Origin: Stomoxys calcitrans
Taxonomy: Eukaryota > Arthropoda > Insecta > Diptera > Muscidae
Direction of reading: 5' to 3'
DNA: 64,000 nt
Assembly (NCBI RefSeq): GCF_963082655.1
Contig: NC_081552.1
Coordinates: 122,984,458 to 123,048,457, forward strand
This document shows, in pieces, positions 30,691-50,745 of this stretch; within the stretch, counting starts at the first letter, position 1, and every line of letters begins with the position of its first letter. The notes below the pieces were generated by a model that was not told the DNA's origin, searched no databases, and saw nothing but the letters and a program-made list of their open reading frames with translations. The translations under genes and the position numbers were made by a program.

Positions 30691-30699
30691 ATATGAGAT

Positions 30700-33430
30700 G
30701 GAGTTGTTTTCATTTGTGCTGCCCTGCAAAAGGAAAATACTTTTAAGAGCATAACTATGTATGTTTTTATTTTCATTTCCTTTTTTCTTTAAATATTAAG
30801 GGAATTGAAATCTTGAAATGCCTTTTCAGCAAAATCAACTATTTTGATATATGCCTCCATTCAAGTAAATGAGCCATATGTTAAAAAAATTCGATCCCAA
30901 AATGTCTAAGATTTGGATTTGAGCACAACCTTTAATGTGGCCTATGTATGCATGTCAGGTTGCCGAAATACAAAAATGTCATCGAACTCGAAATCAACAA
31001 GAATTAGGGCAAGGTATTTATTTACCACAAACGCTTCAAGAATTTTTCTTATTCAGCCCTCGAGTCCACGTCGTCCGCGTTTCATACATATACTTAACAC
31101 TTCCAATTGGAATTTAATCCCGCGCAAAAGATTTCACCGAATGTTTTAAAATTTGACCAGAAAGTCTTTTATAAAACGCGTAAATATCTACTAAAGGAAA
31201 TATTTTTGATTCTTTGATTGGATTATTATAAAGAAAATGTCAAGATTTGTTGATAGTATTATATAAACAGTTACAGTGTCCATTTTTATTTGATCACATA
31301 TGTAAGGAATTAAATTTATAAATATATCACGATAAATTCACGCATCAATCAAATCTCATTTACTCACATTTGCAGCACATAGATATCTTGTGCTTTATAA
31401 TATACGCGCAAGGTTGGATACATTTTCTGGGAAAAGGGAGATATATACCCAAAAGCTTTTCAGTATTAGTCTGGCAATCTCAATGGCAATTATATCAGTG
31501 ATAAAAGAAATTAATCTTAAAATTATTGCAGCTAAGGCTTTTTCTAAACATTTTTTATTATAAGTGCTACAAATTTGGTTAACCAAATAATGTGAACTTA
31601 TCTTCGAATGGGGCTATAAGTATGATTTAATCACCTTACTTTTTTTGAAATTTAATAATTTAATTAAAAAAATCATTAATTCAATAAAGTCAATAAACTT
31701 GCCAATTAGGTGCGGAAGAGATCAATAACAACAATTTAGTTTGAGAAATGCAAGAATAAAAAAAGTTATCCGAATCGAATTGTCCTGTGAATATAAGTGG
31801 CAAGTTCAGGATAGACGCATCAATAATACATATTTATGTATTTACACTCAAGAAATTTTGAGCCTCAACACCAGTTCAAATGAACTAACATTGGGAAATA
31901 TTGAACTTCCCAAGGCGCTATAGAATTATAGGCTCGCTACGAGTTCAATAATTTCATCACAGTTTCAAAATTGTTTTTACATACTATTAGTTCAGTTTTC
32001 ACTTCTCACTGGTAAAATATTAACTAACAAGCATTGAAATTGAAATTTTAAATTATTGAAAAAATCGCTATTTACGACTCTTTGAAGCATCTAATTATAG
32101 ATTGGCGGACACATTTAATTACATAACCCAGTTTCGCCTGTCTCCCATCCGCACGCTCTCAATTGCTCAGCTGTTTTGAAGAAGACAAATTTAATATGAA
32201 AAATTGCAATTATACATTAAATAAGGCTTTGCCTTATGTCGCAGCCAAGTGTTCAACCGAGAACCTTCCGTTTAATAAGCGGACGCTTTACTCATTCATT
32301 CACATCACTATTATTTGAGTTTTCGACTATTTTCTTCTTTCAATATTCGCTAACCACCCAAAGGCAAAACATTTTCCAGCTCTTTTCCATCAAAGAAGGC
32401 CACTCTATTTTGTTTAGGTTTTAGATTTTCTAATTATAGACACAATGTTCATCTTCAGTGGAAGTGACCATAATTTCAAATAACATAATCAATACAAAGG
32501 TCCCGAGTTCGAGTCTCGAGCAAGAAAAATGATTTTTAATTATTTCATACTTTAAAATTATGTCCCACATTCAGCGTAGTTAATTCATATTTATGTAGTT
32601 AATTCATATTTACGATAAACATTTTTCTGAGTGTATATCTAGAAAATATTTTATGAACGAAAATCATATATTCAGTGTGGAAACCAGGGCTTTGGAGTCG
32701 AGTAATTTTGACTCAACTCGGACCACATACATTTTTTAATTTTTTCCTTGATTTTTGGCTCATGTTCTAGTTCGAGATCGTATTCAATGCTTTATATTCA
32801 AATTATGGCATAGCAAAGTTTTTATTCAAAACACTTTGAATGGCGGTGGATAATGATTTCATGTATTACGTACGTCGTACGTATGTACGTCATGTATTTC
32901 CATCAATACCTTTGTCAAATTGATTAAGATGTCCTACATACCCAAAGACTATTGAGTACGGTAATGAGCACGCTTTTGCATTGAAATAGGGCTCAATAAG
33001 TCATCTAACTCTACTTAGTGCAGTAAGAGAGAAGAAAGCCTTGCTTTCCACTATTCCAGTACAAACTTATCATCAATGCTAAGAACAACAAACACATCTA
33101 CATTGCCAAACTCTTTCTTTCTTTGTGCACTTGAACATTATTTGAATGTCAATGCAAATGCTTTTTCTGCTTTGACCTACAGCACAGCGACGGTCTGATT
33201 CGGTTGTTAGCGGTTGAACGAATGAGGCTATCTGCATCAAATTTCTCATAAATATTTCTTTTCGATGTTGATCGTAGGCTGTTGGAAATGTGTCATTTGT
33301 CCAGATTGATTTCAGTTTATAAAACATAACAAATTTTAAGATACTTAAACATGGTTTTTACTACTGAGTACGCACTTCAAACTGTTCGAAAATTGAGCTT
33401 ATTAAAATACGGGTGCAAGTTTTTAATATT
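30700..33430. other. Gene-free AT-rich intergenic stretch
   Basis: The longest piece without a recognised element. Open frames are all 60-80 residues and none has a motif I know. At 32490-32525, GGTCCCGAGTTCGAGTCTCG resembles a tRNA T-arm/B-box, and may be the tail of an unknown tRNA-derived SINE; the D-arm half is not convincing. At 32866-32890, TACGTACGTCGTACGTATGTACG is a short palindromic cluster. At 32575-32620, GTTAATTCATATTTA is repeated in tandem. Nothing else stood out. Confidence 0.5.
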
Positions 33431-33436
33431 TTTTAA

Positions 33437-33570
33437 CGGTTCAGATTTAGATGCAGCTCCCATGTGTATGTGTCGCCCGATATTTACTTCTAGAGCCTTT
33501 GTTAGGGCATTTATCAACCGATCATAGCAAAATTTTACTCAACTATTTCCTCTATGACTCCTTAAATATG
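33437..33570 (+). mobile_element. Family C Helentron internal fragment
   Basis: GGTTCAGATTTAGATGCAGC, then CTCCCATGTGTATGTGTCGC and GCCCGATATTTACTTCTAGA match the body of the C element at 2.9-3.3 kb. Neither terminus is present. Confidence 0.65.
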
Positions 33571-33599
33571 TACGGATTTTGTTCGAAATTCTACACAGT

Positions 33600-34060
33600 G
33601 AAAAGATTTAAATAGAATTTTCCCAAAAAGAAAATATCAATGCAATTTTTTGTAAGACAAAATTTCAATTAATTTTTTTTTAAATCATAAAATTTTAGTG
33701 ACATTTTTTCTAAACAAAATTTTATCGAAATTTTTTCCAAGCACAAAATGATTTTTTTTACAAAATTTTAGTGCAATTTTTTCTAAAGAATTTTTCAATG
33801 AAATCTGTTTTAAAGACATATTTGTAATTATAAATTTTCCATACACAAAATTTTGAAGACATATTTCAAATAAATTTTTAAAAACCAAATTTAATTGATA
33901 TTTTTCTTAAATTTTCTGAAGAGAAGATTTCAATGCAATTTTCTCAAAATTGTAATGAAATTTTTTTTCTAAAGAGAAAATTGTATTAACATGCTTTAAA
34001 GACAAAATTTTAATGTCATTTTATGACATGACAACCAAAAACCCATGTTTTTAAAGTTAG
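33600..34060. repeat. Degenerate AAAATTTT-rich minisatellite
   Basis: A word of the type AAAATTTTAGTGAAATTTTT with CTAAAGACA linkers recurs at about 25-35-bp spacing with much drift. It continues weakly at 34200-34340. Similar A/T minisatellites are familiar in calyptrate fly introns and spacers. It yields low-complexity frames (33685-33888, minus) that are not genes. Confidence 0.6.
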
Positions 34061-34348
34061 CTAGAAAAAATTGTTTTTTGCTTTGTAATAGTATTTCCCT
34101 GTTTTCCTAGATCGCAATTTCGTTTGGTACCACCCAAACTCCTCTGTAGGATTTGTCAAAAAGGTCTGTATTCTAGTATGTCTTTGTTTTCTTTCTTTTT
34201 TTTTTTCTTAATTTCAATAAGATTTCTGCGAAAAAAATTATGGAAAAATTCTTCATAAACAACACTTTAATATCTTTTTCTCCAAAACCAATATTTCAAT
34301 AAAAGTTTCGCTAAGAAAAATTTCCTTGAAATTTAATTTTTTTCTGTT

Positions 34349-34920
34349 TTATGCCCTCCACCATAGGATGGGGGAATACAACTTTCGTCATTCCGTTTGC
34401 AAAACATAGAAATATTGGTCTGAGGCCCCTAATAAGTTTATATTTATCACCATCGTCTAAACATTCTGAGTCGATTTAGCCATGTCCATATGTCTGTCCG
34501 TTAGTGTTGGTCGGTTGTCTGATGAGTGTATGTCGTTTGGGATTGTGAATGGACCATTTCGATCCATGTTTTTATATAGCTGGCTTCTGTAGCAATCCGA
34601 TTTGGCTATAATCTTTTATAAGGTGTTTTGCTGTGACCAACGACTGTGCCAAGTAAAGTCCGAATCGGTTCACAACTTGACATAGCTCACATATAAACCA
34701 ATCTCTCGATTATATTTTTTGATCCCTATTGGGCGAAATTTTGCACAATGACTTCTACTATGGCTTCCAGCATCCAAGCCAAGTATGGCCCGTTTTGATC
34801 TATTATCTGATATAGCTCCAATATTATACCAATTCTTATCCATTATCTTTGTTTACCTAAAAAGTGATACCGAGCAAATTACTTGACTCAAACGAAACCT
34901 GATGGAGGGTATATAAAATT
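34349..34920 (+). mobile_element. Family A-like Helentron, internally deleted
   Basis: The 5' end (ATGCCCTCCACCATAGGATG) and a shortened microsatellite (CCATGTCCATATGTCTGTCC) are followed by diverged monomers and TATCCATTATCTTTGTTTACC. The 3'-proximal CTGATGGAGGGTATATAAA is present, but the stem-loop and tail are gone. An old copy. Confidence 0.75.
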
Positions 34921-35379
34921 CACAAAAAGTTATGAAGGCTTTATAAACAACTTATAGGCATTTGCACCAAAAACCGTATTAAAAAACTTTTAATAGTCTA
35001 TTAAGAGTTTAAAGAAGCTTTGTGCAGTGAGCATAAGTTATAGTAAGCTCTGACCTACTTTAACCAGACATTAACCTCTCTTATTGTATTTTTGGCAAAA
35101 TAAATATCTGTTGAAAAAACAGATTTTTTTTACAGATTTTCGAAAATAATCTCCTTACGAAATGCCATATGCATTTTAAAAATGTGACGAAAACGATTTC
35201 TTTTAGTGGCTACATATAATCGAAAGAATTTGGACCGGAAGCGTATACACATTTTGAAACATGCCCATGAGTCCGAAAAAGTCAAAAGCAAAAACAAATA
35301 TTTTTTATTTGGTGTCTTTAATTTTTTGTGGGGTGTGTACCAGTTGATTGCAAATCTATTGCAACACATAGTTTAGGTT
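34921..35379. other. AT-rich intergenic DNA, nothing recognised
   Basis: No repeat, motif or credible coding frame. The minus-strand 79-residue frame is low in complexity and matches no family I recognise. Confidence 0.45.
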
Positions 35380-35499
35380 GAAAAAATGTTAATTAACCCG
35401 CCCCATGCCACTATGGACATACACCTAAGCCAGTAATCGTCTTGTTGTGCGCTCTAAAAACTAAAAAGTAACCTCAAAAAAGAAAAGTTTTATGTTAGG

Positions 35500-36290
35500 A
35501 ATTCCGTGCTACTTACAAAATCCTTGTTTTCCATACCACTCCCCTAAGTTGGTTCATGTCTGTTATCGTGTCCCCACCTAAGTACCGGTGTCTGTTAGCC
35601 GCGAAAGCAGTGCAATGACACAGGAAATGCTCCTACGTCTCATCATCTTCCCCATATGCCCTACACATGCTATTACTTTGCATACCGATTTTGCATAAGT
35701 GAGCTCGTAGTCCTATGTGTCCCATTATGACACCAAAAGCTATACTGACCTCCTTCTTACTTCCTTTCAGCAATAGCCTCGTCTTCTCACGATCTGGATA
35801 TCCCCATAGGATTTTCGCCGTCCTATCGACTGTTTAGCTGTTCCACAGGTTTACATGCGCATTCGCCGTCCCCGCCCATAACTCGGACTGATTAGACCCG
35901 AAAGGCTTCGGGTTAACCAAGTTTATTGACGCCAGTTCTCTGGCCTTCACTGCCCATTCATTCCCCCTTGCTCCGTTATCCAAACCGGCACTCAAACGAT
36001 GCGGATTGTGCCATTCTCAGAGAAGGCGTTAATCACCTTCTTATACTAGGGGACTGCTCGCGACCTTACCCTCCTTTGATATTGCTCTTATGGCTATATA
36101 ACTGTGCATAAAAATGTTCACACTCGACATCCACTCGACGTTAGTACCACACCACCTTACACATTCCGTGATCGCCCGGATCTCCGGCAGCAGGGCTGTA
36201 TTATGGTCAGGCAGTCTAAAACAGATCTCAGTCCCTGGTTTCGTAATGTAGACCAACAGGCCCACTCTGACCCTAGCTTTATCCACCCGT
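35500..36290 (-). pseudogene. RNase H and C-terminal knuckle of the 35-39 kb LINE
   Basis: 36286-36041 reads MDKARVRVGLLVYITKPGTEICFRLPDHNTALLPEIRAI, so RNase H is recognisable with its Glu-bearing EIRAI segment. The following FMHSYIAIRAI has lost the usual SDSQAA Asp. Downstream, in other frames, come RIGTVPGH-like text and, at about 35680-35560, a MCRAYGEDDET..HFLCHC knuckle. Catalysis is very unlikely. Confidence 0.75.
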
Positions 36291-36388
36291 GTAACATGAT
36301 CTTCCAGATGGCAATACTAGGGTTCCGTCAGTCAAAAATTGTGCCGCTGGCAGCAGTGCCTCGCACTCGACCTCAAGTGACGTCTCAG

Positions 36389-37650
36389 TTATCCGATCGG
36401 AAACTTTTCCTTTACTTTCAGGTTTCCTATCGTCGCCTCGATTGTACCGCGATGGTATGAGCTGCTTCCATCCTTAATCCATTCTACAAGCGCCTTAAGT
36501 CTCATAGACGCAATGACTGAGTCACATTTCATCTGTATGTCAATTGGAAGGATATTTAGAAAAGTCTCAAACGCCCAGTGGACGAGGTCCTCATCGGTCC
36601 GCTTATGCCGAGACAACATGGATTTAGGCCCTATTTCCAGCCTACGGCCCGTCTACAGTGTCCAACATTTGTGAGCGTTCTCAGTACGCTCCTGAATGTG
36701 ACACTTCCAATAAAGTTTCCTATCCAAGATCGCTAATAAGTATTTTACCTTGTCAGATATCGAAATCGTTTTATTGAGGAAACGGGGTGCGTTAAATTGG
36801 CCACCTTCGTCTTCCTCGTGAACATGCATATTTCAGTCTTCTCTGGGTTAACATTGAGAACTCTGGGTCTAGCCCAGAAATATGCCCTATGCAATACCTT
36901 TTCAGCCCTTCTGCATAACTGCTTCGGAACCTTTCACCTAAGAAGTATTAGGTGCATAGCAGACGGGTTCTTATCCCTCCTCAGTTAAGGGACCTCTAAG
37001 GACCCGGAACTGGTCTATGGATGGAATTAATGTATAGTTCCGTATATTTTTGAACGCTCCTTCGATGTCAATGCAAACTGCCAATGTGTACGTTTTGGCA
37101 TCGAAGGATTCTTCTATTTTATGGATTCTTTTATTTATATGCAACCTCGTGCAGGGCAGTCTCCACCGACCTTCCCTTGACATAGGCATACTGTTTGCAT
37201 CTAAGCAGTTCGCTGGATGTCCTATTCTTTATCATGGTATCTACAATGCGTTCCATGGTTTTGAGTAGAAAGGACGTAAGGCTTATAGGTCTTTAGGACT
37301 TTAGTGTCGCATGCCTTGCCTTGCCGGTCTTGGGTATAAATACCATCCTTGCCTCCTGCCAGACTTTCGGAGTATGAAAATAGTCTGCCTCCTTCTGTAG
37401 TAACGCGCGAAATATTCCATCAGGTCCGGGTTACTTAAATGGTTTGAAGCTCCTCAAGGATTCCTTCACCACAAATTCCGTAATTATAAACCTTCGATCA
37501 ACGTCATTATTCCAAGATTCCGGTGTCTCCTTGAGTCCCGTCGTATCCTGTGAAAAATAAGGTTTCATCAAAAGCCTCAACATGTCCTCCGTTGTCTCTG
37601 CTCTCACTCCCATGTCGTCTACTAAAGTTTCAGTTTGGACATGTGTTTTT
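36389..37650 (-). pseudogene. RT domain relic of the 35-39 kb LINE
   Basis: Pieces in order on the minus strand: 37613-37431 ends ESLRSFKPFK, the start of the SFKPFKSPGPDG motif. 37189-36971 holds TLAVCIDIEGAFKNIRN, RT motif A with the first catalytic Asp. 36619-36389 holds the thumb-like HWAFETFLNILPIDIQMK and SVIASMRLKALVEW. No clear YADD box was found between them. At least three frame breaks are present. Confidence 0.75.
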
Positions 37651-37663
37651 GAAAGAAAATTGT

Positions 37664-38227
37664 TTAACTTGGCGGCATTAACGCTATCGACCTGTTGGCA
37701 GAAATGCTTCCAGGAGGTACGTTTTGCCGCTCTATACGTGCTCTGTTAAAAATACTGCAGACCTCTTTCCCAATATTGCGAATCTCTCCGATCATCCGGG
37801 GTTTTTTTTGGGTTGATTTCCTTTCTTCGAAAGACCCCACCAGTGTAGTCGTAGTCCTGTTGACATCATCGTCAGTGTCTTCTATGCTTGGACAATCTAA
37901 ATTATCTTGTCCAAGTCTTTTTTTGAGTAGCCTTCCGAATTTTGTCCAGCTGGTTTTCCACTTATTCCGGAAGCTTATCGGATTCTGCGCTGGCCGTGCT
38001 ATTCTAAACCTAATGTAGCGATGGTCAGAGAAAGAGTGTTCCATGGAGACCCTCCAATCCTGAACCTCATCGATTACATTTCCCGAACATATTGTCTCGT
38101 CTAATAACTTCTCCCTAATCCCATTAACAAAGGTAGCGGCGTTATCAATATTAAGTGTTATAAGGTCGTTAGTATTCAAAAACTCTGCCAGGGCTTGGCC
38201 CCGCCTGCAGTGTTGGTACTGCACCAC
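37664..38227 (-). pseudogene. Endonuclease (EEP) C-terminal half of the 35-39 kb LINE
   Basis: A 187-residue frame, the longest in the window. It contains ALAEFLNTNDLITLNIDNAA (strand preceding the catalytic core), FVNGIREKLLDETICSGNVI and SMEHSFSDHRYIRFRI, in which SDHRYI is the conserved Asp-His of apurinic-type LINE endonucleases. It continues into a linker toward RT. In a live element it nicks the target for reverse transcription. The N-terminal half lies in other frames upstream, so the gene is broken. Confidence 0.85.
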
Positions 38228-38665
38228 GAAATGTGGTGAGAGTTCGTACGCACCCTATTAGTACCTCGTTTCCCGTCTGCTTTGCTTTCCTCACCAGCCG
38301 TTGCAGCTCCGACGTGGGTGGCGGTGTCGGAGAATTGAAAGGCAGATAAAATGACGCCAGGTATGCTCCACTGTCGCCCTGTCTCACCACTGTTGCATCC
38401 GACGTTGACAACTCTGGGGAAAATACACAATTTAAATTTTTATGACAAATAACGCAGGTCCTAATAGTAATTTTAAGTAAATATGTTCCAGTCCAGAAAC
38501 TTTGTTTCGGGTCATCCATGGCTCCTGAATTAAGGCTATAGAATCTTGCTGATTTTCTCCATCAGAGCGTGAGTAGCTGTCTCGCTCCGGTGGAGGTTTG
38601 TCTAGATGATTTCCATTATTGGTCCTCCAGTAGATGTTTTTCTTGGGAGTAGGTGATGGTCTCAA
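38169..38665 (-). pseudogene. Endonuclease N-terminal half of the 35-39 kb LINE
   Basis: 38665-38432 contains SIALIQEPWMTRNKVSGLE, the QEPW motif with catalytic Glu. The next frame (38519-38169) contains CHKNLNCVFSPELSTSDATVV and RLVRKAKQTGNEVLIGC. Frameshifts separate the halves. The overlapping alternative frame at 38430-38176 carries TNSHHISW, the normal continuation (DxNxHH-type). Confidence 0.75.
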
Positions 38666-38669
38666 CGTT

Positions 38670-39650
38670 TTCTCCCCGTTCTTTAGGTTGCATTGAGTTT
38701 CCCGTCACTGTACTGATTGATGTTTGTTAATGTTGAGAGTCGGTAATGGTTCCATCATCGGGTCCCTGTTCGTTAAGCTATATTCAGTCTACCGTACCTG
38801 CAATGAATGATGTTCCAATATTAGGATCTTTGTCTATACTATTCTTCCAAATCTTAATTAAATCGGCTTCCTGGGTGTAGGTAGACCATAACCTATACAG
38901 CCTAACCATCGTTGGCTCCCTGTGGGTAAGCCGGCATTGAGTTCTTTGTCACTGCACTGTCTGATGTTTCCGCATTAAGATCTATATCCATCGTATTCTT
39001 CCCAATCTCGAGAAAGTTGTTGATGGTTCCGTCGTCGGGTCCCTGTTCGTTAGTCCTGTTCCGACTTTGTCTCCCTCCACAGAACACTGTCTGGTGTCTC
39101 CATTGCGAGAGGGCTGGCTTGGTCTTCCCAGAGTACTTGAAAGCGGGAGGCTTTTTTTCAGCATTTTAGCAGTGTTATGCTCTTCGGGAGATCTGATTCT
39201 GTTTCTAGCTTCTATAGAATTGCTTGGAATGTCAGTTCTATCCCTTCCAGCACATTCTATCCCTTCCACATTCGCCCGATTGCGCTGCCTGTATATACTC
39301 TTATGTCTCCTACGTCGTGCTCGGATCGCTTTCTCGGTCTGCTTGTGAGTTTAGCAAAGCCATCGCGCACTTCCGCCGTCATCCCGCTGCCTTCATCTCT
39401 TGATTCGCCTGCGATGACTGTTTCAGTGATACTTTACTTAAAGGCTGGGGACGAGCTGTGCATCCCTCTGGTTTATCGGTCTCTTCCTCATTAATTAGTC
39501 TGACGACTAGTTGTGCGCTTGAAGCATTACTCTCGATTACAGGTGCCAAGGCACCCACACTTTTAGGAGGGGAAGCCAACATGCTGCGGTCTGACGTCAC
39601 CATCGCAGCTGTTGGATCTTTGGAGTTCATTTTGAGCCTACTCCAAAAAG
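38670..39650 (-). pseudogene. ORF1 of the 35-39 kb LINE
   Basis: It starts at 39630 with MNSKDPTAAMVTSDRSMLAS, paralleling MDSKEPTAAVEKSGRK of the 20.9 kb relic. The sequence is Ser/Lys/Arg-rich and unstructured. Further downstream frames (39269-38902) are also low in complexity, with a near-repeat of GNDGT..TDEQGP-like text: the word GTCGGGTCCCTGTTCGTTA recurs at 38757 and 39034. The function would be RNA binding. It is broken. Confidence 0.6.
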
Positions 39651-39777
39651 GCTTTAAAATTTTGTCGTAGTAGGTATCCGAGATACGGATACTTTCTTCG
39701 ATGAGCGAAATGAAAACACGTCCGCTCCACTCAACGGCTGCTAATATTTCAACACATAGAATTAATTAAACAACCAG

Positions 39778-40272
39778 TAAGGAAGGGCAAAAGTCGGGCG
39801 GTGCCGACTGTATAATACCCTACACCTACTTTTAAGTACAATGTGGGAACTATATCCAATTCTGAACCATTTTTGATGGACCTCGGCGAACAAAAATTTG
39901 TTCAAACTGTAATAACTACGGTTGACAAATGACAACATTATTGCAAATAACTCAAAATCTGATGAACATATATATGGGAGCTATGTCCAAATCTGAACCC
40001 ATTTTTTTCCAATTTCAATAGGCTTCGTCTTTAGGCGGAAAGACACGCCCATACCAAATTTGGAGACGATCGGATGATAATTGCGACCTGTAGTTTGTAC
40101 ACAAATTAACATGGACAGACGAACAGACAGACGGACATAGCTAAATCGAATCAGAGAGTGATTCTGAGTCGATCGGTATACTTATCAATGGGTCTATCTC
40201 TCTTCCTTTTGGGTGTTACAAACTAATTCAATAAGTAATAATACCCTGTATCACAGTAGTGGTGTAGGGTAT
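39778..40272 (-). mobile_element. Family C Helentron-like element, internally deleted
   Basis: The 3' tail and stem-loop lie at 39778-39806 (GCAAAAGTCGGGCGGTGCCG). The microsatellite complement ACAGACGAACAGACAGACGG lies near 40115. The 5' end ACAGTAGTGGTGTAGGGTATA lies at 40252-40272. The central repeats are nearly all missing compared with the 2.4-3.6 kb copy (about 495 bp against 1250 bp). Confidence 0.85.
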
Positions 40273-40386
40273 AATAATCATTTAATTACTTAAAGGCGTT
40301 AAATAAGCCAATAGGAGTTGTTGTTAAGTCACGCTGGTTATAATTCATTGCAATTTGAGATAGCTATTTGAACAATTTTTGTGATT

Positions 40387-40441
40387 ATACCCTACACCAC
40401 TACAGTGGTCCATGGCATTATAACTTAGTAAATTTGTTTGT
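40387..40441 (+). mobile_element. Isolated family C 5' end fused to a family A body
   Basis: ATACCCTACACCACTACAGTG through AATTTGTTTGTAAC is the first 55 bp of a C element. It then switches to GAAACACGTCGTGCAAAATT, the interior of an A monomer in inverted orientation. TAAC is shared by both sequences at the join (CATAACGAAACAC in A; GTAACACC in C). Confidence 0.8.
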
Positions 40442-40972
40442 AACGAAACACGTCGTGCAAAATTTCATTCCAATCGGATAAGAATTGCGCACTCTATAGG
40501 CTCAAGAAGTCAAGACCCAAGATCGGTTTATATGGCAGCTATATCAGATTATATACCGATTTGAACCATACTTGGCACAGTTGTTGGATATCATAACAAA
40601 ACACGTCGTGAAAAATTTCATCCCAATCGGATAAGAATTGCGCACTCTAGAGGCTCAAGAAGTAAAGACCCAAGATCGGTTTATATGGCAGCTATATCAA
40701 AACATGGACCGATATGGCCCATTTACAATACCAACCGACCTACACTAATAAGAAGTATTTGTGCAAAATTTCAAGCGGCTTGCTTTACTCCTTCGGAAGT
40801 TAGCGTGCTTTCGACAGACAGACGGACGGACGGACAGACGGACAGACATGGCTAGATCGACATAAAATTTCACGACGATCTAGAATATATATACTTTATG
40901 GGGTCTCAGACGAATATTTCGAGTAGTTACAATCAGAATGACGAAATTAGTATTGTATAGGAGGGTATAAAA
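40441..40972 (-). mobile_element. Partial family A Helentron at the array's left edge
   Basis: It begins inside a monomer and contains about three monomers, the microsatellite (GACAGACGGACGGACGGAC near 40815) and the 5' block. Its 5' terminus reads TATTGTATAGGAGGGTATAA, lacking about 11 bp of the usual CCCCCATCCTATGGTGG region. This variant terminus is shared by all internal array copies. Confidence 0.85.
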
Positions 40973-41104
40973 ATGGACCCCCACCAACGTTGAAAACCCA
41001 CACAAACGAAAAAACCACCTTGATTTGCGGATCTGCACATGGAATGTCCGCACTCTCTATAGAGAAGATGCAGTATACGCGCTGGCGGATGTATTAGAAA
41101 AGTA
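40973..41104 (+). pseudogene. RTE-like endonuclease N-terminal fragment, copy a1
   Basis: Translates to a segment like RICTWNVRTLYREDAVYALADV, the start of the EEP endonuclease of RTE-type/craniofacial-development-protein-2-like retrotransposons (TWNVRTL carries the metal-binding Asn). It ends VLEKYK, where the Helentron interrupts it. Markers TTGAAAAC and CCTTGATT make it type a. Confidence 0.85.
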
Positions 41105-42425
41105 CAAGTAAAAGCGTGCTAAGTTCGGCCGGGCCGAATCTTATATACCCACCACCATGGATCGCATTTGTCGAGTTCTTTTCCCGACATCTCTTCTTAG
41201 GCAAAAAAGGATATAAGAAAAGAGTTGCTCTGCTATTAAAACGATATCAAGATATGGTCCGGTTCGGACCACAATTAAATTATATGTTGGAGACCTGTGT
41301 AAAATTTCAGCCAATTCGTATAAGAATTGCGCCCATTGGGGCTCACGAAGTAAAATAGAGAGAACGATTTATATGGGATCTGTATCGGGCTATAGACCGA
41401 TTCAGACCATAATAAACACGTTTGTTGATGGTCATGAGAGGATCCGTCGTACAAAATTTCAGGCATATCGGATAATAATTGCGACTTCTAGGGGTCAAAA
41501 AGTCAAGATCCCAGATCGGTTTATATGGCAGCTATATCAGGTTATGAACCGATTTCAACCTTATTTGACACAGTTGTTGAAAGTAAAAATAAAATACGTC
41601 ATGCAAAATTTCAGCCAAATCGGATAGGAATTGCGCCCTCGAGAAGCTCAAGAAGTCAAATCCCCAGATCTGTTTATATGACAGCTATATCAGGTTATGG
41701 ACCGATTTCAACCATACTTGGCAAAGTTGTTGGATATCATAACGAAATACTTGGTGCCAAAAATTAATTCCAATCGGATAAGAATTGCGCCCTCTAGAGG
41801 CTAAAGAAGTCAAGACCCCAGATCGGTTTATATGGCAGCTATATCAGGTTATAGACCGATTTGAACCATACTAGGCACAGTTTTTGGATATAATAACGAA
41901 ACACGTCGTGCAAAATTTCATTCCAATCGGATAAGAATTGCGCACTCTAGAGGCTCAAGAAATCAAGACCCAAGATCGGTTTATATGGCAGCTATATCAG
42001 ATTATATACCGATTTGAACCATACTTGGCACAGTTGTTGGATATCATAACAAAACACGTCGTGAAAAATTTCATCCCAATCGGATAAGAATTGCGCACTC
42101 TAGAGGCTCAAGAAGTAAAGACCCAAGATCGGTTTATATGGCAGCTATATCAAAACATGGACCGATATGGCCCATTTACAATACCAACCGACCTACACTA
42201 ATAAGAAGTATTTGTGCAAAATTTCAAGCGGCTTGCTTTACTCCTTCGGAAGTTAGCGTGCTTTCGACAGACAGACGGACGGACGGACAGACGGACGGAC
42301 ATGGCTAGATCGACATAAAATTTCACGACGATCAAGAATATATATACTTTATGGGGTCTCAGACGAATATTTCGAGTAGTTACAATCAGAATGACGAAAT
42401 TAGTATTGTATAGGAGGGTATAAAA
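41105..42425 (-). mobile_element. Array family A Helentron, 6 monomers
   Basis: The 3' end (ACAAGTAAAAGCGTGC, stem-loop GTTCGGCCGGGCCGAA) adjoins the RTE fragment at 41104/41105. Monomers begin at 41366 and every 153 bp to 42131. The microsatellite lies near 42268-42298. It ends in the variant 5' terminus before the next RTE fragment. Confidence 0.9.
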
Positions 42426-42557
42426 ATGGACCCCCACCAACGTTGACAACCCACACAAACGAAAAAACCACCATGATTTGCGGATCTGCACATGGAATGT
42501 CCGCACTCTCTATAGAGAAGATGCAGTATACGCGCTGGCGGATGTATTAGAAAAGTA
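42426..42557 (+). pseudogene. RTE-like endonuclease N-terminal fragment, copy b1
   Basis: Same 132-bp fragment with type b markers (TTGACAAC, CCATGATT). It again ends at VLEKYK. Confidence 0.85.
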
Positions 42558-44490
42558 CAAGTTAAAGCGTGCTAAGTTCGGCCGGGCCGAATCTTATATA
42601 CCCACCACCATGGATCGCATTTGTCGAGTTCTTTTCCCGACATCTCTTCTTAGACAAAAAAGGATATAAGAAAAGAGTTGCTCTGCTATTAAAACGATAT
42701 CAAGATATGGTCCGGTTCGGACCACAATTAAATTATGTGTTGGAGACCTGTGTAAAATTTCAGCCAATTCGTATAAGAATTGCGCCCATTGGGGCTCACG
42801 AAGTAAAATAGAGAGAACGATTTATATGGGATCTGTATCGGGCTATAGACCGATTCAGACCATAATAAACACGTTTGTTGATGGTCATGAGAGGATCCGT
42901 CGTACAAAATTTCAGGCATATCGGATAATAATTGCGACTTCTAGGGGTCAAAAAGTCAAGATCCCAGATCGGTTTATATGGCAGCTATATCAGGTTATGA
43001 ACCGATTTCAACCTTATTTGACACAGTTGTTGAAAGTAAAAATAAAATACGTCATGTAAAATTTCAGCCAAATCGGATAGGAATTGCGCCCTCGAGAAGC
43101 TCAAGAAGTCAAATCCCCAGATCTGTTTATATGACAGCTATATCAGGTTATGGACCGATTTCAATCATACTTGGCAAAGTTGTTGGATATCATAACGAAA
43201 TACTTGGTGCCAAAAATTAATTCCAATCGGATAAGAATTGCGCACTCTAGAGGCTCAAGAAGTCAAGACCCAAGATCGGTTTATATGGCAGCTATATCAG
43301 GTTATGCACCGATTTAAACCATACTTGGCACAGTTGTTGGATATCATAACAAAACACGTCGTGCGAAATTCCATTTCAATCGGATAAGAATTGCGCCCTC
43401 TAGAGGCTCAAGAAGTCAAGACCCAAGATCGGTTTATATGGCAGCTATATCAGGTTATGGACCGATTTGAACCATACTTGGCACAGTTGTTGGATGTCAT
43501 AACAAAACACGTCGTGCAAAATTTCATTTCAATCGGATAAGAATTGCGCACTCTAGAGGCTCAAGAAGTCAAGACCCAAGATCGGTTTATATGGCAGCTA
43601 TATCAGGTTATGAACCGATTTGAACCATACTTGGCACAGTTGTTGGATATCATAACAAAACACGTCGTGCGAAATTCCATTTCAATCTGATAAGAATTGC
43701 GCTCTCTAGAGGCTCAAGAAATCAAGACCCAAGATCGGTTTATATGGCAGCTATATCAGGTTATAGACCGATTTGAACCATACTTGGCGCAGTTGTTGGA
43801 TATCATAAAAAAACACGCCGTACAAAATTTCATTCCAATCGGATAAGAATTGCGCACTCTAGAGGCTCAAGAAGTCAAGACCCAAGATCGGATTATATGG
43901 CAGCTATATCAGATTATAGACCGATTTGAACCATACTAGGCACAGTTTTTGGATATAATAACGAAACACGTCGTGCAAAATTTCATTCCAATCGGATAAG
44001 AATTGCGCACTCTAGAGGCTCAAGAAATCAAGACCCAAGATCGGTTTATATGGCAGCTATATCAGATTATATACCGATTTGAACCATACTTGGCACAGTT
44101 GTTGGATATCATAACAAAACACGTCGTGAAAAATTTCATCCCAATCGGATAAGAATTGCGCACTCTAGAGGCTCAAGAAGTAAAGACCCAAGATCGGTTT
44201 ATATGGCAGCTATATCAAAACATGGACCGATATGGCCCATTTACAATACCAACCGACCTACACTAATAAGAAGTATTTGTGCAAAATTTCAAGCGGCTTG
44301 CTTTACTCCTTCGGAAGTTAGCGTGCTTTCGACAGACAGACGGACGGACGGACAGACGGACGGACATGGCTAGATCGACATAAAATTTCACGACGATCTA
44401 GAATATATATACTTTATGGGGTCTCAGACGAATATTTCGAGTAGTTACAATCAGAATGACGAAATTAGTATTGTATAGGAGGGTATAAAA
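42558..44490 (-). mobile_element. Array family A Helentron, 10 monomers
   Basis: The longest array member. Monomers run from 42819 to 44196 with exact 153-bp register. The tail reads ACAAGTTAAAGCG, a private A-to-T change. It carries the TATGTGTTGG type b marker. Confidence 0.9.
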
Positions 44491-44622
44491 ATGGACCCCC
44501 ACCAACGTTGAAAACCCACACAAACGAAAAAACCACCTTGATTTGCGGATCTGCACATGGAATGTCCGCACTCTCTATAGAGAAGATGCAGTATACGCGC
44601 TGGCGGATGTATTAGAAAAGTA
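44491..44622 (+). pseudogene. RTE-like endonuclease N-terminal fragment, copy a2
   Basis: 132-bp fragment with type a markers (TTGAAAAC, CCTTGATT), matching copy a1 rather than its neighbours. Confidence 0.85.
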
Positions 44623-46096
44623 CAAGTAAAAGCGTGCTAAGTTCGGCCGGGCCGAATCTTATATACCCACCACCATGGATCGCATTTGTCGAGTTCTTTT
44701 CCCGACATCTCTTCTTAGGCAAAAAAGGATATAAGAAAAGAGTTGCTCTGCTATTAAAACGATATCAAGATATGGTCCGGTTCGGACCACAATTAAATTA
44801 TATGTTGGAGACCTGTGTATAATTTCAGCCAATTCGTATAGGAATTGCGCCCATTGGGACTCACGAAGTAAAATAGAGAGAACGATTTATATGGGATCTG
44901 TATCGGGCTATAGACCGATTCAGACCATAATAAACACGTTTGTTGATGGTCATGAGAGGATCCGTCGTACAAAATTTCAGGCATATCGGATAATAATTGC
45001 GACTTCTAGGGGTCAAAAAGTCAAGATCCCAGATCGGTTTATATGGCAGCTATATCAGGTTATGAACCGATTTCAACCTTATTTGACACAGTTGTTGAAA
45101 GTAAAAATAAAATACGTCATGCAAAATTTCAGCCAAATCGGATAGGAATTGCGCCCTCGAGAAGCTCAAGAAGTCAAATCCCCAGATCTGTTTATATGAC
45201 AGCTATATCAGGTTATGGACCGATTTCAACCATACTTGGCAAAGTTGTTGGATATCATAACGAAATACTTGGTGCCAAAAATTAATTCCAATCGGATAAG
45301 AATTGCGCACTCTAGAGGCTCAAGAAGTCAAGACTCAAGATCGGTTTATATGGCAGCTATATCAGGTTATGCACCGATTTAAACCATACTTGGCACAGTT
45401 GTTGGATATCATAACAAAACACGTCGTGCGAAATTCCATTTCAATCGGATAAGAATTGCGCCCTCTAGAGGCTCAAGAAGTCAAGACCCAAGATCGGTTT
45501 ATATGGCAGCTATATCAGGTTATGGACCGATTTGAACCATACTTGGCACAGTTGTTGGATGTCATAACAAAACACGTCGTGCAAAATTTCATTTCAATCG
45601 GATAAGAATTGCGCACTCTAGAGGCTCAAGAAGTCAAGACCCAAGATCGGTTTATATGGCAGCTATATCAGGTTATGAACCGATTTGAACCATACTTGGC
45701 ACAGTTGTTGGATATCATAACAAAACACGTCGTGCGAAATTCCATTTCAATCTGATAAGAATTGCGCCCTCTAGAGGCTCAAGAAGTCAAGACCCAAGAT
45801 CGGTTTATATGGCAGCTATATCAAAACATGGACCGATATGGCCCATTTACAATACCAACCGACCTACACTAATAAGAAGTATTTGTGCAAAATTTCAAGC
45901 GGCTTGCTTTACTCCTTCGGAAGTTAGCGTGCTTTCGACAGACAGACGGACGGACGGACAGACGGACGGACATGGCTAGATCGACATAAAATTTCACGAC
46001 GATCAAGAATATATATACTTTATGGGGTCTCAGACGAATATTTCGAGTAGTTACAATCAGAATGACGAAATTAGTATTGTATAGGAGGGTATAAAA
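44623..46096 (-). mobile_element. Array family A Helentron, 7 monomers
   Basis: Monomers run from 44884 to 45802 in exact 153-bp register. Type a marker TATATGTTGG. It corresponds to the 6-monomer copy after the dimer duplication, so one monomer was gained or lost since. Confidence 0.9.
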
Positions 46097-46228
46097 ATGG
46101 ACCCCCACCAACGTTGACAACCCACACAAACGAAAAAACCACCATGATTTGCGGATCTGCACATGGAATGTCCGCACTCTCTATAGAGAAGATGCAGTAT
46201 ACGCGCTGGCGGATGTATTAGAAAAGTA
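46097..46228 (+). pseudogene. RTE-like endonuclease N-terminal fragment, copy b2
   Basis: 132-bp fragment with type b markers. It is the copy physically closest to the rest of the RTE element, which resumes at 47872. Confidence 0.85.
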
Positions 46229-47871
46229 CAAGTAAAAGCGTGCTAAGTTCGGCCGGGCCGAATCTTATATACCCACCACCATGGATCGCATTTGTCGAGT
46301 TCTTTTCCCGACATCTCTTCTTAGGCAAAAAAGGATATAAGAAAAGAGTTGCTCTGCTATTAAAACGATATCAAGATATGGTCCGGTTCGGACCACAATT
46401 AAATTATGTGTTGGAGACCTGTGTAAAATTTCAGCCAATTCGTATAAGAATTGCGCCCATTGGGGCTCACGAAGTAAAATAGAGAGAACGATTTATATGG
46501 GATCTGTATCGGGCTATAGACCGATTCAGACCATAATAAACACGTTTGTTGATGGTCATGAGAGGATCCGTCGTACAAAATTTCAGGCATATCGGATAAT
46601 AATTGCGACTTCTAGGGGTCAAAAAGTCAAGATCCCAGATCGGTTTATATGGCAGCTATATCAGGTTATGAACCGATTTCAACCTTATTTGACACAGTTG
46701 TTGAAAGTAAAAATAAAATACGTCATGCAAAATTTCAGCCAAATCGGATAGGAATTGCGCCCTCGAGAAGCTCAAGAAGTCAAATCCCCAGATCTGTTTA
46801 TATGACAGCTATATCAGGTTATGGACCGATTTCAACCATACTTGGCAAAGTTGTTGGATATCATAACGAAATACTTGGTGCCAAAAATTAATTCCAATCG
46901 GATAAGAATTGCGCACTCTAGAGGCTCAAGAAGTCAAGACCCAAGATCGGTTTATATGGCAGCTATATCAGGTTATGCACCGATTTAAACCATACTTGGC
47001 ACAGTTGTTGGATATCATAACAAAACACGTCGTGCGAAATTCCATTTCAATCGGATAAGAATTGCGCCCTCTAGAGGCTCAAGAAGTCAAGACCCAAGAT
47101 CGGTTTATATGGCAGCTATATCAGGTTATGGACCGATTTGAACCATACTTGGCACAGTTGTTGGATGTCATAACAAAACACGTCGTGCAAAATTTCATTT
47201 CAATCGGATAAGAATTGCGCACTCTAGAGGCTCAAGAAGTCAAGACCCAAGATCGGTTTATATGGCAGCTATATCAGGTTATGAACCGATTTGAACCATA
47301 CTTGGCACAGTTGTTGGATATCATAACAAAACACGTCGTGCAAAATTCCATTTCAATCTGATAAGAATTGCGCTCTCTAGAGGCTCAAGAAATCAAGACC
47401 CAAGATCGGTTTATATGGCAGCTATATCAGGTTATAGACCGATTTGAACCATACTTGGCGCAGTTGTTGGATATCATAAAAAAACACGCCGTACAAAATT
47501 TCATTCCAATCGGATAAGAATTGCGCACTCTAGAGGCTCAAGAAGTCAAGACCCAAGATCGGTTTATATGGCAGCTATATCAAAACATGGACCGATATGG
47601 CCCATTTACAATACCAACCGACCTACACTAATAAGAAGTATTTGTGCAAAATTTCAAGCGGCTAGCTTTACTCCTTCGGAAGTTAGCGTGCTTTCGACAG
47701 ACAGACGGACGGACGGACGGACGGACAGACGGACGGACATGGCTAGACCGACATAAAATGTCACGACGATCAAGAATATATATACTTTATGGGGTCTCAG
47801 ACGAATATTTCTAGTAGTTACAAACAGAATGACGAAATTAGTATACCCCCCATCTTGTGGTGGAGGGTATA
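46229..47871 (-). mobile_element. Array family A Helentron, 8 monomers, intact 5' end
   Basis: Monomers run from 46490 to 47561. The microsatellite is extended (five successive GGAC steps near 47705-47740). Its 5' terminus is the complete CCCCCCATCTTGTGGTGGAGG form, unlike the other array members. The RTE reading frame resumes immediately after GGGTATA. ACAAG occurs at both host junctions. Confidence 0.9.
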
Positions 47872-48270
47872 ACAAGGCAGATATTACCGCCTTACAGGAA
47901 ATGCGATGGACTGGGAATGACGTCACTACAACACCAAACAGTGACGAACTATACTATAGCTGACATAACACGAGGCATGAATTTGGCTGTGGATTTGTGG
48001 TTAGTCGGAGACTGAAACACCTTATCTCCAGCTTTACTCCGGTGGGTGAGGGGCTAGCCACAATCCGCATAAAAGCCAAATTTGTCAACATCAGCCTTAT
48101 TTGTGCTCATGCCCCGACGGACGACAAGGACGAGCAGACCAAGGATATTTTCTACGAGCGCCTAAAGAGAGAATATGACCGCTGCCCCGCCCATCATATT
48201 AAAATCGTTCTGGGAGATTTTAAACAAGCAAGACATTTTTGGTCCAACAGTCGAAAAGTTTAGCCTCCAC
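47872..48270 (+). pseudogene. RTE-like endonuclease, main part
   Basis: ADITALQEMRWTGND, then (after a frame break at about 47965) FGCGFVVSRRLKHLISSFTP, IRIKAKFVNISLICAHAPTD, KDEQTKDIFYERLKREYDRC and IKIVLGDF (usual GDFNA; here GDFKQ, so the Asn is lost). These are successive core motifs of the EEP endonuclease. The N-terminal strand lies in the 132-bp fragments upstream of the Helentron. Confidence 0.85.
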
Positions 48271-48539
48271 GAGATCCAGTAATGGGTTGAGGCTAATAGA
48301 TTTCGCCGCGGCAAAAACATGGTAGTTAGTAGCACCAGATTTCAACATAAAAATATTCACAAAGCCACATGGCTGTCACACGATCAAAACCAAATTGATC
48401 ACGCTGTGATAGATGGAAGATATTCATCCAGCGTGTTAGATAAACGAAACGAACAAACGAACGAATATAGATTCGGATTATTACCTTGTTACAGCAAAGG
48501 TTCGCACCCGTCTGAACATGGCGATGAAAGTACGATCTG

Positions 48540-49915
48540 ACACTACACGGAAGCTGGACATTGAAAAGCTGCAAGCAGATGGCAGCGGCATACTCCACTC
48601 GAAGGACCCAACTGCTTGATGAAAGCACTCCTTGTTCCGATGATATTATGGCGCAGTGGCAAACTATTGTCCACACCATAGAAAATGCTGCGAAATCCGT
48701 ACTTGGGTACCGATGAAGGAGAGGTATCAGGAGAAAAGGAGAGAGGAAAAACGTCTATTCCGCAGAAAGAAAAAGGAAATGGAAAGACGAGAGTGTAAGC
48801 GAATTGAGATGTACAGGAGTTAGAATGAAGTCCGGAAATTCTACCAAATAATTAAACATCAAGCCGATGGCTTTGGTGCAGGCACATCCTCCTGCAGAAT
48901 GAGGTTTACCTCCTAGTCAGAATGAGGTCCAAGTAGCAGTAACCCGACAAAAGAACAGACAGGCAGCAGGAGCCGACGGGTTACGCTGAACTATTTAAGA
49001 CCGGAGGCGACACGCTGATAAGGCGTATGCATCAGCTTATCTACGCAATCTGCTTAGAGGAACGCATACCCGATGATTGAAACCTCAGCATACTATGTCC
49101 CGAACTCAAGAACAGAGTCAAGACGGAATGTGCCAACTACAGAGGAATAAGTCTCCTTCCCATCACATACAAGATACTGTCGAGCGTACAGTGTGAAAGA
49201 TTAAAACCCAAAGTCAATGAGATAATTGGGCCCTAGACCAGATATTCACACTGCGCCAAATCTTGGAAAAGACCCGAGAAGGACAAATTAACACCCACCA
49301 TCTCTTTGTTGACTACAAAGACGCTTTCGATACTCCTTTACGTTCAAAAGTATTTCAAGCCATGTCTGAGTTTAGTTTCCCTGCAAAATTAATTAGGCTC
49401 TGCAGGATGATACTTGCTGATACGCGTTCCTCAGTAACAATAGGAAAGTATCTCTCGGAAACATTCAATACCAAACGAGGTTTCAGACAAGTAGATATCC
49501 TATCGTGTGATCTCTTTAATATCCTGCTGGAGAAGATTATACGAGATGCAGAAGTGAATAGATATGGCACACTAATCACAAGAGAAATGGATCTTGCAGT
49601 AAATGGAGATAAGACGAAATTGATGGTTTCAACTCCCAAAACGTCTTGTACAACCGAGCAGATAAAGAAAATGGAGAAAGTTAGGAACCACAACTTTGAG
49701 ATAGGCAGTAACTTTATCTACTTCTGCACCGCCGTAACTGAAACGAATGACACCAGTTTTGAGATAAAGGGATGAATAATACTGGCAAACAGATGCTACT
49801 TTGGACTAAGTAAGCAGTTTAAAAACAAGGCCAACTCTCGACAAACGAAGATTACACTATACAAGACACTTATACTACCCGTGTTGTTATAAGGTTCTGG
49901 GCATGGGTACTTGTG
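48540..49915 (+). pseudogene. RTE-like reverse transcriptase, YADD box deleted
   Basis: Frames give NRQAAGADGL (RT start motif), AELFKTGGDTLIRRMHQLI, CANYRGISLLPITYKILSS, then a 170-residue frame (49263-49775). That frame has HHLFVDYKDAFDTPLRSK (motif A Asp), RLCRMILADTRSSV and TKRGFRQVDILSCDLFNILL. RDAEVNRYGTLITREM then joins directly to DLAVNGDKTKLMVST. The segment that normally carries YADD between these motifs is missing. The thumb begins at about 49680. Confidence 0.85.
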
Positions 49916-50745
49916 AAAGCAGATAAGATAATTAATATTTATCGGATTTGACCGGTTTTTGTTATATAAGTAAGCTTACAGCCATATTTTTCCAGGCTTT
50001 TTGACAAATACCTCAGACTTACTTTCATCACTTAACAAGAAGTCCTTTCAGTAAGAAACCTAATTTTTTTCGTATAACTAGTTTGTTTAAAGATGAATCA
50101 ATGTTTTTTTTAATCAAACGCATTACTACATTTCATTTTGATGCTCACGGTATACTCCACAAAATCACCACCCCTACTATAAGAAATCGCGCATGAATTA
50201 TTTTTAAGGTGTTTTATGTCTGGCAGATGAATTTGCTAAACTTCAATGAAATAAAACTGGTTTAAAAAACTCGTTGACAAACAAATTTACTGTGAAAACT
50301 TTCAGAAATTATAACCCCATGTACGAAATTTTAATTGCGAATTTTACAGCGGTATATAGTTGAAATGATTTTTTAAACTGTTTACACCAACACAAAATAC
50401 GAAAAAAAATCTGTGTATTAGAAAACTGTCCGGAAATTGGAACCAGAAGCTCTAATATCAGAAAGTTCCGAGGTTCAAATTTCCGAGATCTATTGTAATA
50501 TCATAAAAATCGTTTTTTTTTTCCTGTAAATAGTACTTTCATCCCTATTTGGAATTGTCCATGTCCCAGATTTGCTGTTGTACAGTGTATTTATTCGACA
50601 TAAATTTCTATTTGTGGTCACATCCTAAGCACTCAGAGAAATGTGTTAGTAAAATAGCAAAAATGTTTGCTGTAACAGCAGAAAATCTGCTGAAAATGGG
50701 ACAGCAGCAATTTCTTGCCAAAGCAGCAAGGATTTTCTGTTGTTC
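49916..50745. other. AT-rich intergenic DNA, nothing recognised
   Basis: AT-rich; no repeat shared with the rest of the window. The frame from 50549 mixes unique and repeat sequence and is not credible as a gene. Confidence 0.5.

What the first reader, a model, noticed from the sequence alone, without database searches (positions are those of the whole stretch)
40973..47871. Higher-order satellite-like array born from a Helentron inside a retrotransposon
Units of one 132-bp RTE endonuclease fragment plus a family A Helentron start at 40973, 42426, 44491 and 46097. The spacings (1453, 2065, 1606) differ by exactly 4 and 1 times 153 bp. Monomer counts are 6, 10, 7 and 8, with no indel breaking the 153-bp register. 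It looks like early satellite formation caught in the act: monomer, composite unit, array. Central tandem repeats of Helentrons giving rise to satellites are described for Drosophila DINE-TR1; the capture of a host retrotransposon fragment in each unit is what seems unusual here.
Basis: seen in the sequence. Interest (0 to 1): 0.9.

Follow-up and report, generated by a model that had tools for sequence, protein, structure and literature searches.

The report
Transposon pair duplicated by unequal crossing-over
In a fly genome, two copies of the same mobile element sit side by side in another mobile element, and mispairing between them has most likely copied the short stretch between them into a four-unit tandem array; this is an unusually readable example of a familiar process rather than a new satellite.

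Summary
It explains the array.

X and the last Helentron, Y (46229-47871), point the same way and flank 132 bp of an RTE retrotransposon (R). The three internal Helentrons (H1-H3) are hybrids: left parts match Y, right ends match X, including an 11-bp deletion and three derived SNPs. Each switches inside a different 153-bp monomer. Unequal crossing-over between X and Y predicts this. R need not have been captured; it is the spacer between two direct repeats.

Derived SNPs, polarised with other genomic copies, fit two doublings: X-R-Y, then X-R-H-R-Y, then X-R1-H-R2-(Y/X)-R1-H-R2-Y. One further monomer exchange (H1 versus H3) is needed.

Elsewhere, 36 other R matches (40 of 1085 candidates scored) lie at least 14 kb apart, and 13 of the 13 with enough sequence read straight through Y's site. 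A rolling-circle origin from Y predicts Y-type right ends inside the array; 0 of 3 are seen.

Verdict: a clear case of non-allelic recombination between Helentrons. It may be a seed for a composite satellite; nothing found shows a satellite now.

The parts
40441..40972 (+). X: truncated family-A Helentron (2.2 monomers, x1 x2, X-type right end lacking 11 bp next to the subterminal repeat). Its left edge abuts a reversed end of another Helentron family (40384-40444). The published DINE-1/Helentron orientation is the minus strand.
40973..41104 (+). R1: RTE endonuclease fragment, derived bases at 40994 (A) and 41020 (T)
   Evidence: Pfam PF03372 over the joined fragment
41105..42425 (+). H1: hybrid Helentron, monomers a b c d/x0 x1 x2; switches from Y-like to X-like between about 41791 and 41853
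42426..42557 (+). R2: RTE fragment, ancestral bases at the two variable sites
42558..44490 (+). H2: hybrid Helentron, monomers a-g h/x0 x1 x2; switches at about 43892-43914; shares derived G with Y on its left and derived T with X on its right
44491..44622 (+). R3: identical to R1, same two derived bases
44623..46096 (+). H3: hybrid Helentron, monomers a-f g' then X-type right end; switches at about 45736-45788
46097..46228 (+). R4: identical to R2
46229..47871 (+). Y: Helentron with both ordinary ends, monomers a-h; inserted in the RTE at GAAAAGTA/CAAGGCAG
47872..49990 (+). Rest of the same RTE element, continuing in register from R4 (stop codon inside the frame; the right limit is only the end of the stretch compared)

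Best explanation
Two family-A Helentrons (X and Y) came to lie in the same direction 132 bp apart in one RTE copy. Misaligned pairing of X on one chromatid with Y on the other, in register with their 153-bp monomers, followed by crossing-over (non-allelic homologous recombination, NAHR), duplicated everything between the crossover points: one hybrid Helentron (Y left / X right) plus the RTE spacer. A second X-by-Y crossover then doubled the two-unit array to four units. Where each crossover fell among the monomers set the monomer counts, so unit lengths differ by multiples of 153 bp. Shown from sequence: the hybrid structure, the switch points, the empty RTE site at Y and the shared derived SNPs. 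Inferred: crossing-over between chromatids rather than another homologous route (break repair, or re-integration of an excised circle), and that X too was an insertion into this RTE.
For:: X, H1, H2 and H3 share one right end (11-bp deletion and SNPs); Y has the ordinary end. H1, H2 and H3 follow Y with 3, 5 and 7 mismatches over 818, 1466 and 1245 bp, then switch to X-type sequence in monomers 4, 8 and 7. One search, with outgroup matches: derived 40994A (31 of 36 other RTE copies have C, 4 have A, 1 T) and 41020T (35 of 36 have A) are shared by R1 and R3; derived 41284G (28 of 29 outgroup matches have A, 1 a gap) by H2-left and Y-left; derived T at 40881 (38 of 38 have A) by X and H2. These are the groupings that a Y-left/X-right crossover of a two-unit array predicts; 13 of 13 other RTE copies with at least 8 nt downstream read through the Y site; in L070 a family-A Helentron insert with RTE sequence on both sides lies at the same RTE nucleotide as X, so this site does take Helentrons.
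Against: The two-step history predicts H1 and H3 to be alike; they share SNPs but differ in monomers (6 versus 7, with x0-x2 only in H1), so at least one more exchange or conversion is needed. X lacks monomer x0, which H1 and H2 carry, and differs from both at two bases in x1 and one in the microsatellite, so X must have been shortened and changed later. No RTE 5' sequence was found left of X within 30001-41110, so X's insertion into this RTE is not proved. Only four SNPs order the second event, and one of them (40994A) also occurs in 4 of 36 other RTE copies. The L070 insert has two left ends 116 bp apart, so it is itself compound. Outgroup counts are BLAST matches, some from overlapping loci (L006, L009).
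Confidence: 0.9

Rival explanations
1. Rolling-circle transposition of Y read through its end, captured R, and a concatemer of Helentron+R was laid down at the locus. In the published orientation (minus strand) R does lie just past the Helentron terminus, so the direction would fit.
For: Helitrons are described as capturing genome fragments and as using rolling-circle replication (PMC12628747, passages). R lies on the side of Y that carries the stem-loop end.
Against: A circle of Y plus R would join R to Y's own right end. All three internal joints instead have X's deleted right end (0 of 3 Y-type). Copies from one circle would be expected to share one internal structure (inference), but the three hybrids switch in three different monomers. 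None of the 57 match rows outside the array carries more than 11 bases of R.
Confidence: 0.03
2. Homologous excision of a circle (R plus a Y/X hybrid) by X-by-Y recombination, then re-integration by homology at the same locus, instead of crossing-over between chromatids.
For: It gives the same hybrid joints. Extrachromosomal circles made of exact multiples of tandem repeats are reported (PMC3225859, start of abstract in the listing).
Against: Needs more steps. The R1R2R1R2 order comes from one chromatid crossover but would need a two-unit circle. It cannot be excluded by sequence alone.
Confidence: 0.06
3. Assembly artefact: one Helentron in the RTE expanded or collapsed wrongly by the assembler.
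For: No reads were available. Highly similar repeats are a known risk.
Against: Private SNPs in the second and third units (41110, 41201; 41302, 41323, 41341), different monomer counts, and a consistent order of shared changes.
Confidence: 0.04
4. A dispersed young satellite of which this is one array.
For: Composite monomers made of several transposons are proposed to form from transposon nests (PMC12628747, passages).
Against: 36 other scored R matches are at least 14 kb apart, with one R in each fetched stretch. The nearest two, 14.5 kb apart, have near-identical upstream flanks and look like a duplicated locus. Limit: 40 of 1085 candidates were scored.
Confidence: 0.03

Closest known systems
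Tandem arrays of nested transposons in Drosophila melanogaster, e.g. the invader1->DM88 nest at Hsp70B (Bergman et al. 2006, PMC1794594; passages and a figure legend seen)
   Same: A transposon-in-transposon nest multiplied in tandem at one locus.
   Different: Here the recombining repeats (two Helentrons) can be named, the crossover intervals placed within tens of bases, and the order of events read from SNPs; I do not know how far that was done for those loci.
DINE-1-associated duplications: hydra exon 1 (PMC2374699, passages) and the Stellate / beta-NAC families (PMC3359341, passages)
   Same: DINE-1/Helentron copies proposed as homologous targets for unequal or non-allelic recombination.
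   Different: In the passages seen it is inferred from proximity ('remains to be mysterious' in PMC3359341); here the hybrid elements themselves are present. The spacer is an RTE fragment, not a gene.
Composite satellite monomers from 'TE graveyards' (PMC12628747, passages)
   Same: A unit combining pieces of two transposon types, tandemised, with unequal exchange among the proposed routes.
   Different: Four units at one locus; no spread and no large array found.
DINE-TR1 and Helentron central repeats becoming satellites (title and count listing only; otherwise recalled)
   Same: A Helentron with central tandem repeats.
   Different: There (recalled) the internal monomers expand; here the whole element plus spacer is the unit and the monomers mainly provide the register.

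Membership tests
Non-autonomous Helentron / DINE-1 (features from PMC4067079 and PMC2374699, passages) | Subterminal inverted repeats of about 13 bp at both ends | tested here: met
   Y: 14 positions with one mismatch; most other copies listed show the same 15-bp repeat at both ends without that mismatch. H1-H3, with X-type right ends, keep only part of it (10 positions, one mismatch).
Non-autonomous Helentron / DINE-1 | Stem-loop near the published 3' end (window left end) | tested here: met
   6-bp stem, -5.3 kcal/mol; 21 of 200 shuffles fold at least as well (z -1.39), so present but not remarkable by energy.
Non-autonomous Helentron / DINE-1 | GTCY microsatellite and central tandem repeats | tested here: met
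   GACG/GACA run (GTCY on the minus strand) and 153-bp monomers.
Non-autonomous Helentron / DINE-1 | Insertion between T's / T-rich target, no target-site change | tested here: inconclusive
   Copies listed are mostly flanked by A's on the element's window strand (T's on the published strand). The Y site is GAAAAGTA/CAAGGCAG with CAAG shared by element and target, so the exact edge is ambiguous.
Non-autonomous Helentron / DINE-1 | Moved by a Rep/helicase-encoding partner | not tested
   No partner was sought.
RTE-clade non-LTR retrotransposon (R and downstream) | Endonuclease domain continuous with its downstream part | tested here: met
PF03372 E 1.1e-8 over the joined fragment. Eight relatives, picked from the 54, align without interruption across the junction.
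Satellite DNA | Long tandem arrays and/or many copies of the unit in the genome | tested here: not met
   Four units at one locus; 36 other R matches at least 14 kb apart (40 of 1085 candidates scored, so not exhaustive).
Tandem duplication by NAHR between transposons | Hybrid repeat at each internal joint, with parental repeats at the two ends | tested here: met
   H1-H3 hybrid; Y intact and X, though truncated on its left, at the ends.

The most novel reading that the evidence does not exclude
Helentrons land repeatedly at one nucleotide of this RTE family (3 of 36 other copies and X here). If a second Helentron lands nearby in the same direction, the RTE copy becomes a ready-made tandem amplifier whose exchanges are kept in register by the 153-bp monomers. 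On this reading the insertion hot spot plus roughly nucleosome-sized central repeats would be a recurrent route by which composite satellites start in this fly and its relatives, with this locus caught after the two-to-four-unit step.
Probability: 0.12. Interest if true: 0.6.

Novelty: new member of a known kind. Interest (0 to 1): 0.35.

Why it matters
Here both parental repeats and three different hybrids survive, outgroup copies polarise the SNPs, and the order 1 -> 2 -> 4 units can be read. It makes a general proposal about the birth of composite satellites testable by looking for one-, two- and four-unit haplotypes in populations.

Tried and rejected
Rolling-circle capture of R: rejected because the internal joints carry X's right end, not Y's. 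Reading L006/L009 (C1:84.137-84.139 Mb) as similar head-to-tail arrays: rejected, since two of the joints read as Helentron ends next to monomer sequence of another Helentron, i.e. nested insertion. Two copies that seemed to match the X-type end (L010, L011): they have the ordinary right end. One of the two other window copies aligned (at 15496) has a different deletion at the same place, so losing part of this end is not unique to X, but its sequence is not X's. The X-type end string was found in 1 of the 35 loci held at that time, L001, which is the window's own array. RTE 5' sequence to the left of X: not found in 30001-41110. Identifying the species was not pursued; a fly is inferred from the named proteins and the Helentron type. 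The direct repeats seen in random samples L021, L025 and L032 were not examined further. The search (downstream RTE part, genome-wide) did not complete and not repeated.
Full report
OBSERVATION. The window lies at C1:122984458-123048457 of a 1.07-Gb genome in 297 contigs. The four RTE fragments (R1-R4, 132 bp) start at 40973, 42426, 44491 and 46097. Tandem Repeats Finder lists it as a 2.2-copy array at 40441-40773.

THE INTERNAL HELENTRONS ARE HYBRIDS. Aligning the right ends of X, H1, H2, H3 and Y with two other copies from the window shows that X, H1, H2 and H3 share an 11-bp deletion beside the subterminal repeat and the same SNPs, whereas Y has the form seen in most copies listed; one of the two other window copies (15496) has a different deletion there. 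The X-type end occurs, allowing 3 mismatches, only at the four right ends of X, H1, H2 and H3 in the window, and exactly in 1 of the 35 loci then held, L001, which is the array itself. On the left side all four full elements share Y's sequence. Comparing in register: H1 follows Y with 3 mismatches over 818 bp up to 41790, then becomes X-type; H2 follows Y with 5 over 1466 bp up to 43891, then becomes X-type; H3 follows Y with 7 over 1245 bp up to 45735, then becomes X-type. As monomer strings: Y = a b c d e f g h; H2 = a-g h/x0 x1 x2; H3 = a-f g'; H1 = a b c d/x0 x1 x2; X = x1 x2. The three switch points lie in monomers 8 (H2), 7 (H3) and 4 (H1). Exchange in register between 153-bp monomers would be why unit lengths differ by whole multiples of 153.

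R IS A SPACER. The joined sequence R + 47872 onward gives a Pfam endonuclease match (PF03372, E 1.1e-8). Eight relatives, chosen from 54 found, align without a break across ...LEKYK-ADITALQEMRW. The genome search with R scored 40 of 1085 candidates: the 4 array copies at 98-100% and 36 others at 90-93%. I fetched stretches at all 36; each holds one R. Of these, 13 have at least 8 nt beyond R, and 13 of 13 continue as RTE with at most 2 mismatches; the other 23 are too short on that side to judge. So Y is an insertion at GAAAAGTA/CAAGGCAG. On the other side, by eye, 33 of 36 end in RTE-like sequence (typically ...GGAATAGTAAAA) before R. In the other 3 (L038, L061, L070) a Helentron right end abuts R at the same position as X does here. 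In L070 RTE sequence lies left of the insert (158 bp at 96%), so a Helentron went in at X's site; this insert has two left ends 116 bp apart and is itself compound. In L061 a left-end-like match lies about 1.8 kb to the left and no forward RTE flank was found beyond it; in L038 no left end was found in the roughly 5 kb held to its left. The window has no RTE 5' sequence left of X in 30001-41110; X's left edge joins a reversed end of another Helentron family. That X was an insertion into this very RTE is therefore likely, not proved.

ORDER OF EVENTS. Outgroups are 36 RTE copies and family-A matches in L002-L035 (these are BLAST matches, L006 and L009 overlap). A at 40994 (C in 31 of 36, A in 4) and T at 41020 (A in 35 of 36) are shared by R1 and R3. 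G at 41284 (A in 28 of 29) is shared by the left parts of H2 and Y. T at 40881 in X coordinates (A in 38 of 38) is shared by X and H2. Three SNPs of the X-type end (42234, 42322 and 42386 in H1 coordinates; the X-type base in 1 of 35, 3 of 39 and 2 of 36 outgroup matches) and the 11-bp deletion are shared by X, H1, H2 and H3. At two further sites (42310, 42374) it is Y that differs from the outgroup. One crossover of Y's left part with X's right part in an array X-R1-H-R2-Y yields X-R1-H-R2-(Y/X)-R1-H-R2-Y, which puts these shared changes where they are found. The first step, X-R-Y to X-R-H-R-Y, is the same kind of crossover. What does not fit by itself: H1 and H3 should be twins but differ in monomers from the fourth on; one later exchange or conversion is required, and which of the two changed is not settled. 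X must also have lost x0 and its left part, and gained two changes in x1 and one in the microsatellite, after the exchanges.

RIVALS. Helentrons' published orientation is the minus strand here: the stem-loop is at the window's left end of the element. So a rolling-circle read-through from Y would indeed run into R. But its circle would join R to Y's right end, and 0 of 3 internal joints do so. Excision of a circle by X-by-Y recombination and re-integration cannot be excluded by sequence, but needs more steps. Assembly error is unlikely given private SNPs but was not tested with reads. A satellite is not supported: 40 of 11,512 Helentron candidates were scored, giving 65 match rows; by my count 8 lie in the array and 57 elsewhere, and none of the 57 begins before query base 122, i.e. 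none carries more than 11 bases of R. The tool warns that such counts are lower bounds and that very common words are skipped.

OPPORTUNITY. In 20 random 10-kb stretches (200 kb; from C1, C2, C4 and C5) there were 15 left-end matches over 150 bp and 19 right-end matches over 230 bp to family A, many of them diverged (from 70% identity), and RTE matches in 3 of 20, none with R. Extrapolated (inference), tens of thousands of such ends exist, so direct pairs close together should be common. A simple scan for direct repeats found some in 5 of 20 stretches; I looked further at only L020 and L028, neither of which is an array of this kind.

COMPARISON. Tandem arrays of nested transposons are described in D. 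melanogaster (PMC1794594, passages). Unequal or non-allelic recombination between DINE-1 copies has been proposed for hydra exon 1 (PMC2374699, passages) and for Stellate relatives (PMC3359341, passages). Composite satellite monomers from transposon nests are proposed in PMC12628747 (passages). Helentron features are from PMC4067079 (passages). Passages on tandem Cassandra elements in plants (PMC7215508) were seen and not used further. Eight literature searches did not list a paper whose title names a Helentron-RTE composite array; I saw only listings and the named passages, so that is a weak statement. DINE-TR1 itself is known to me from the listing and recall. I file the finding as a new member of a known kind: tandem duplication by NAHR between transposon copies.

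Noticed in passing
L038, L061, L070 (RTE copies elsewhere) and window 40972/40973: In 3 of 36 other RTE copies a Helentron right end abuts the RTE at the same nucleotide as X does here (TAGTAAAA/ACGGACC), with different Helentron sequences: a possible insertion hot spot. L070 has RTE on both sides of a compound insert; the left sides of L038 and L061 are unresolved.
   Followed up: partly
window 59431-60422, 60829-61431 and other rows: Diverged Helentron-like arrays in the same window also have a 153-bp period, although their monomer sequence differs clearly; the period seems better kept than the sequence.
   Followed up: no
L006/L009 (C1:84136969-84139580) and L013: Helentrons inserted inside the monomer arrays or near the ends of other Helentrons, giving head-to-tail copies by nested insertion rather than by unequal crossing-over.
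   Followed up: partly
L028 (C5:12504444-12514443): A tandem repeat with a period of about 331 bp fills most of this random 10-kb sample at about 99% identity: a true satellite candidate.
   Followed up: no
L020 (C5:57632605-57642604), locus positions 2649 and 5907: A 3.25-kb stretch is directly duplicated with 100% identity; very recent duplication or an assembly effect.
   Followed up: no
C1:114599007 and C1:114613477 (L065, L064): Two RTE copies 14.5 kb apart with near-identical upstream flanks: apparently a duplicated locus.
   Followed up: no
window 40384-40444: The left edge of X joins a reversed terminal fragment of another Helentron family whose forward copy lies at 40215-40275 (85% identity).
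   Followed up: partly
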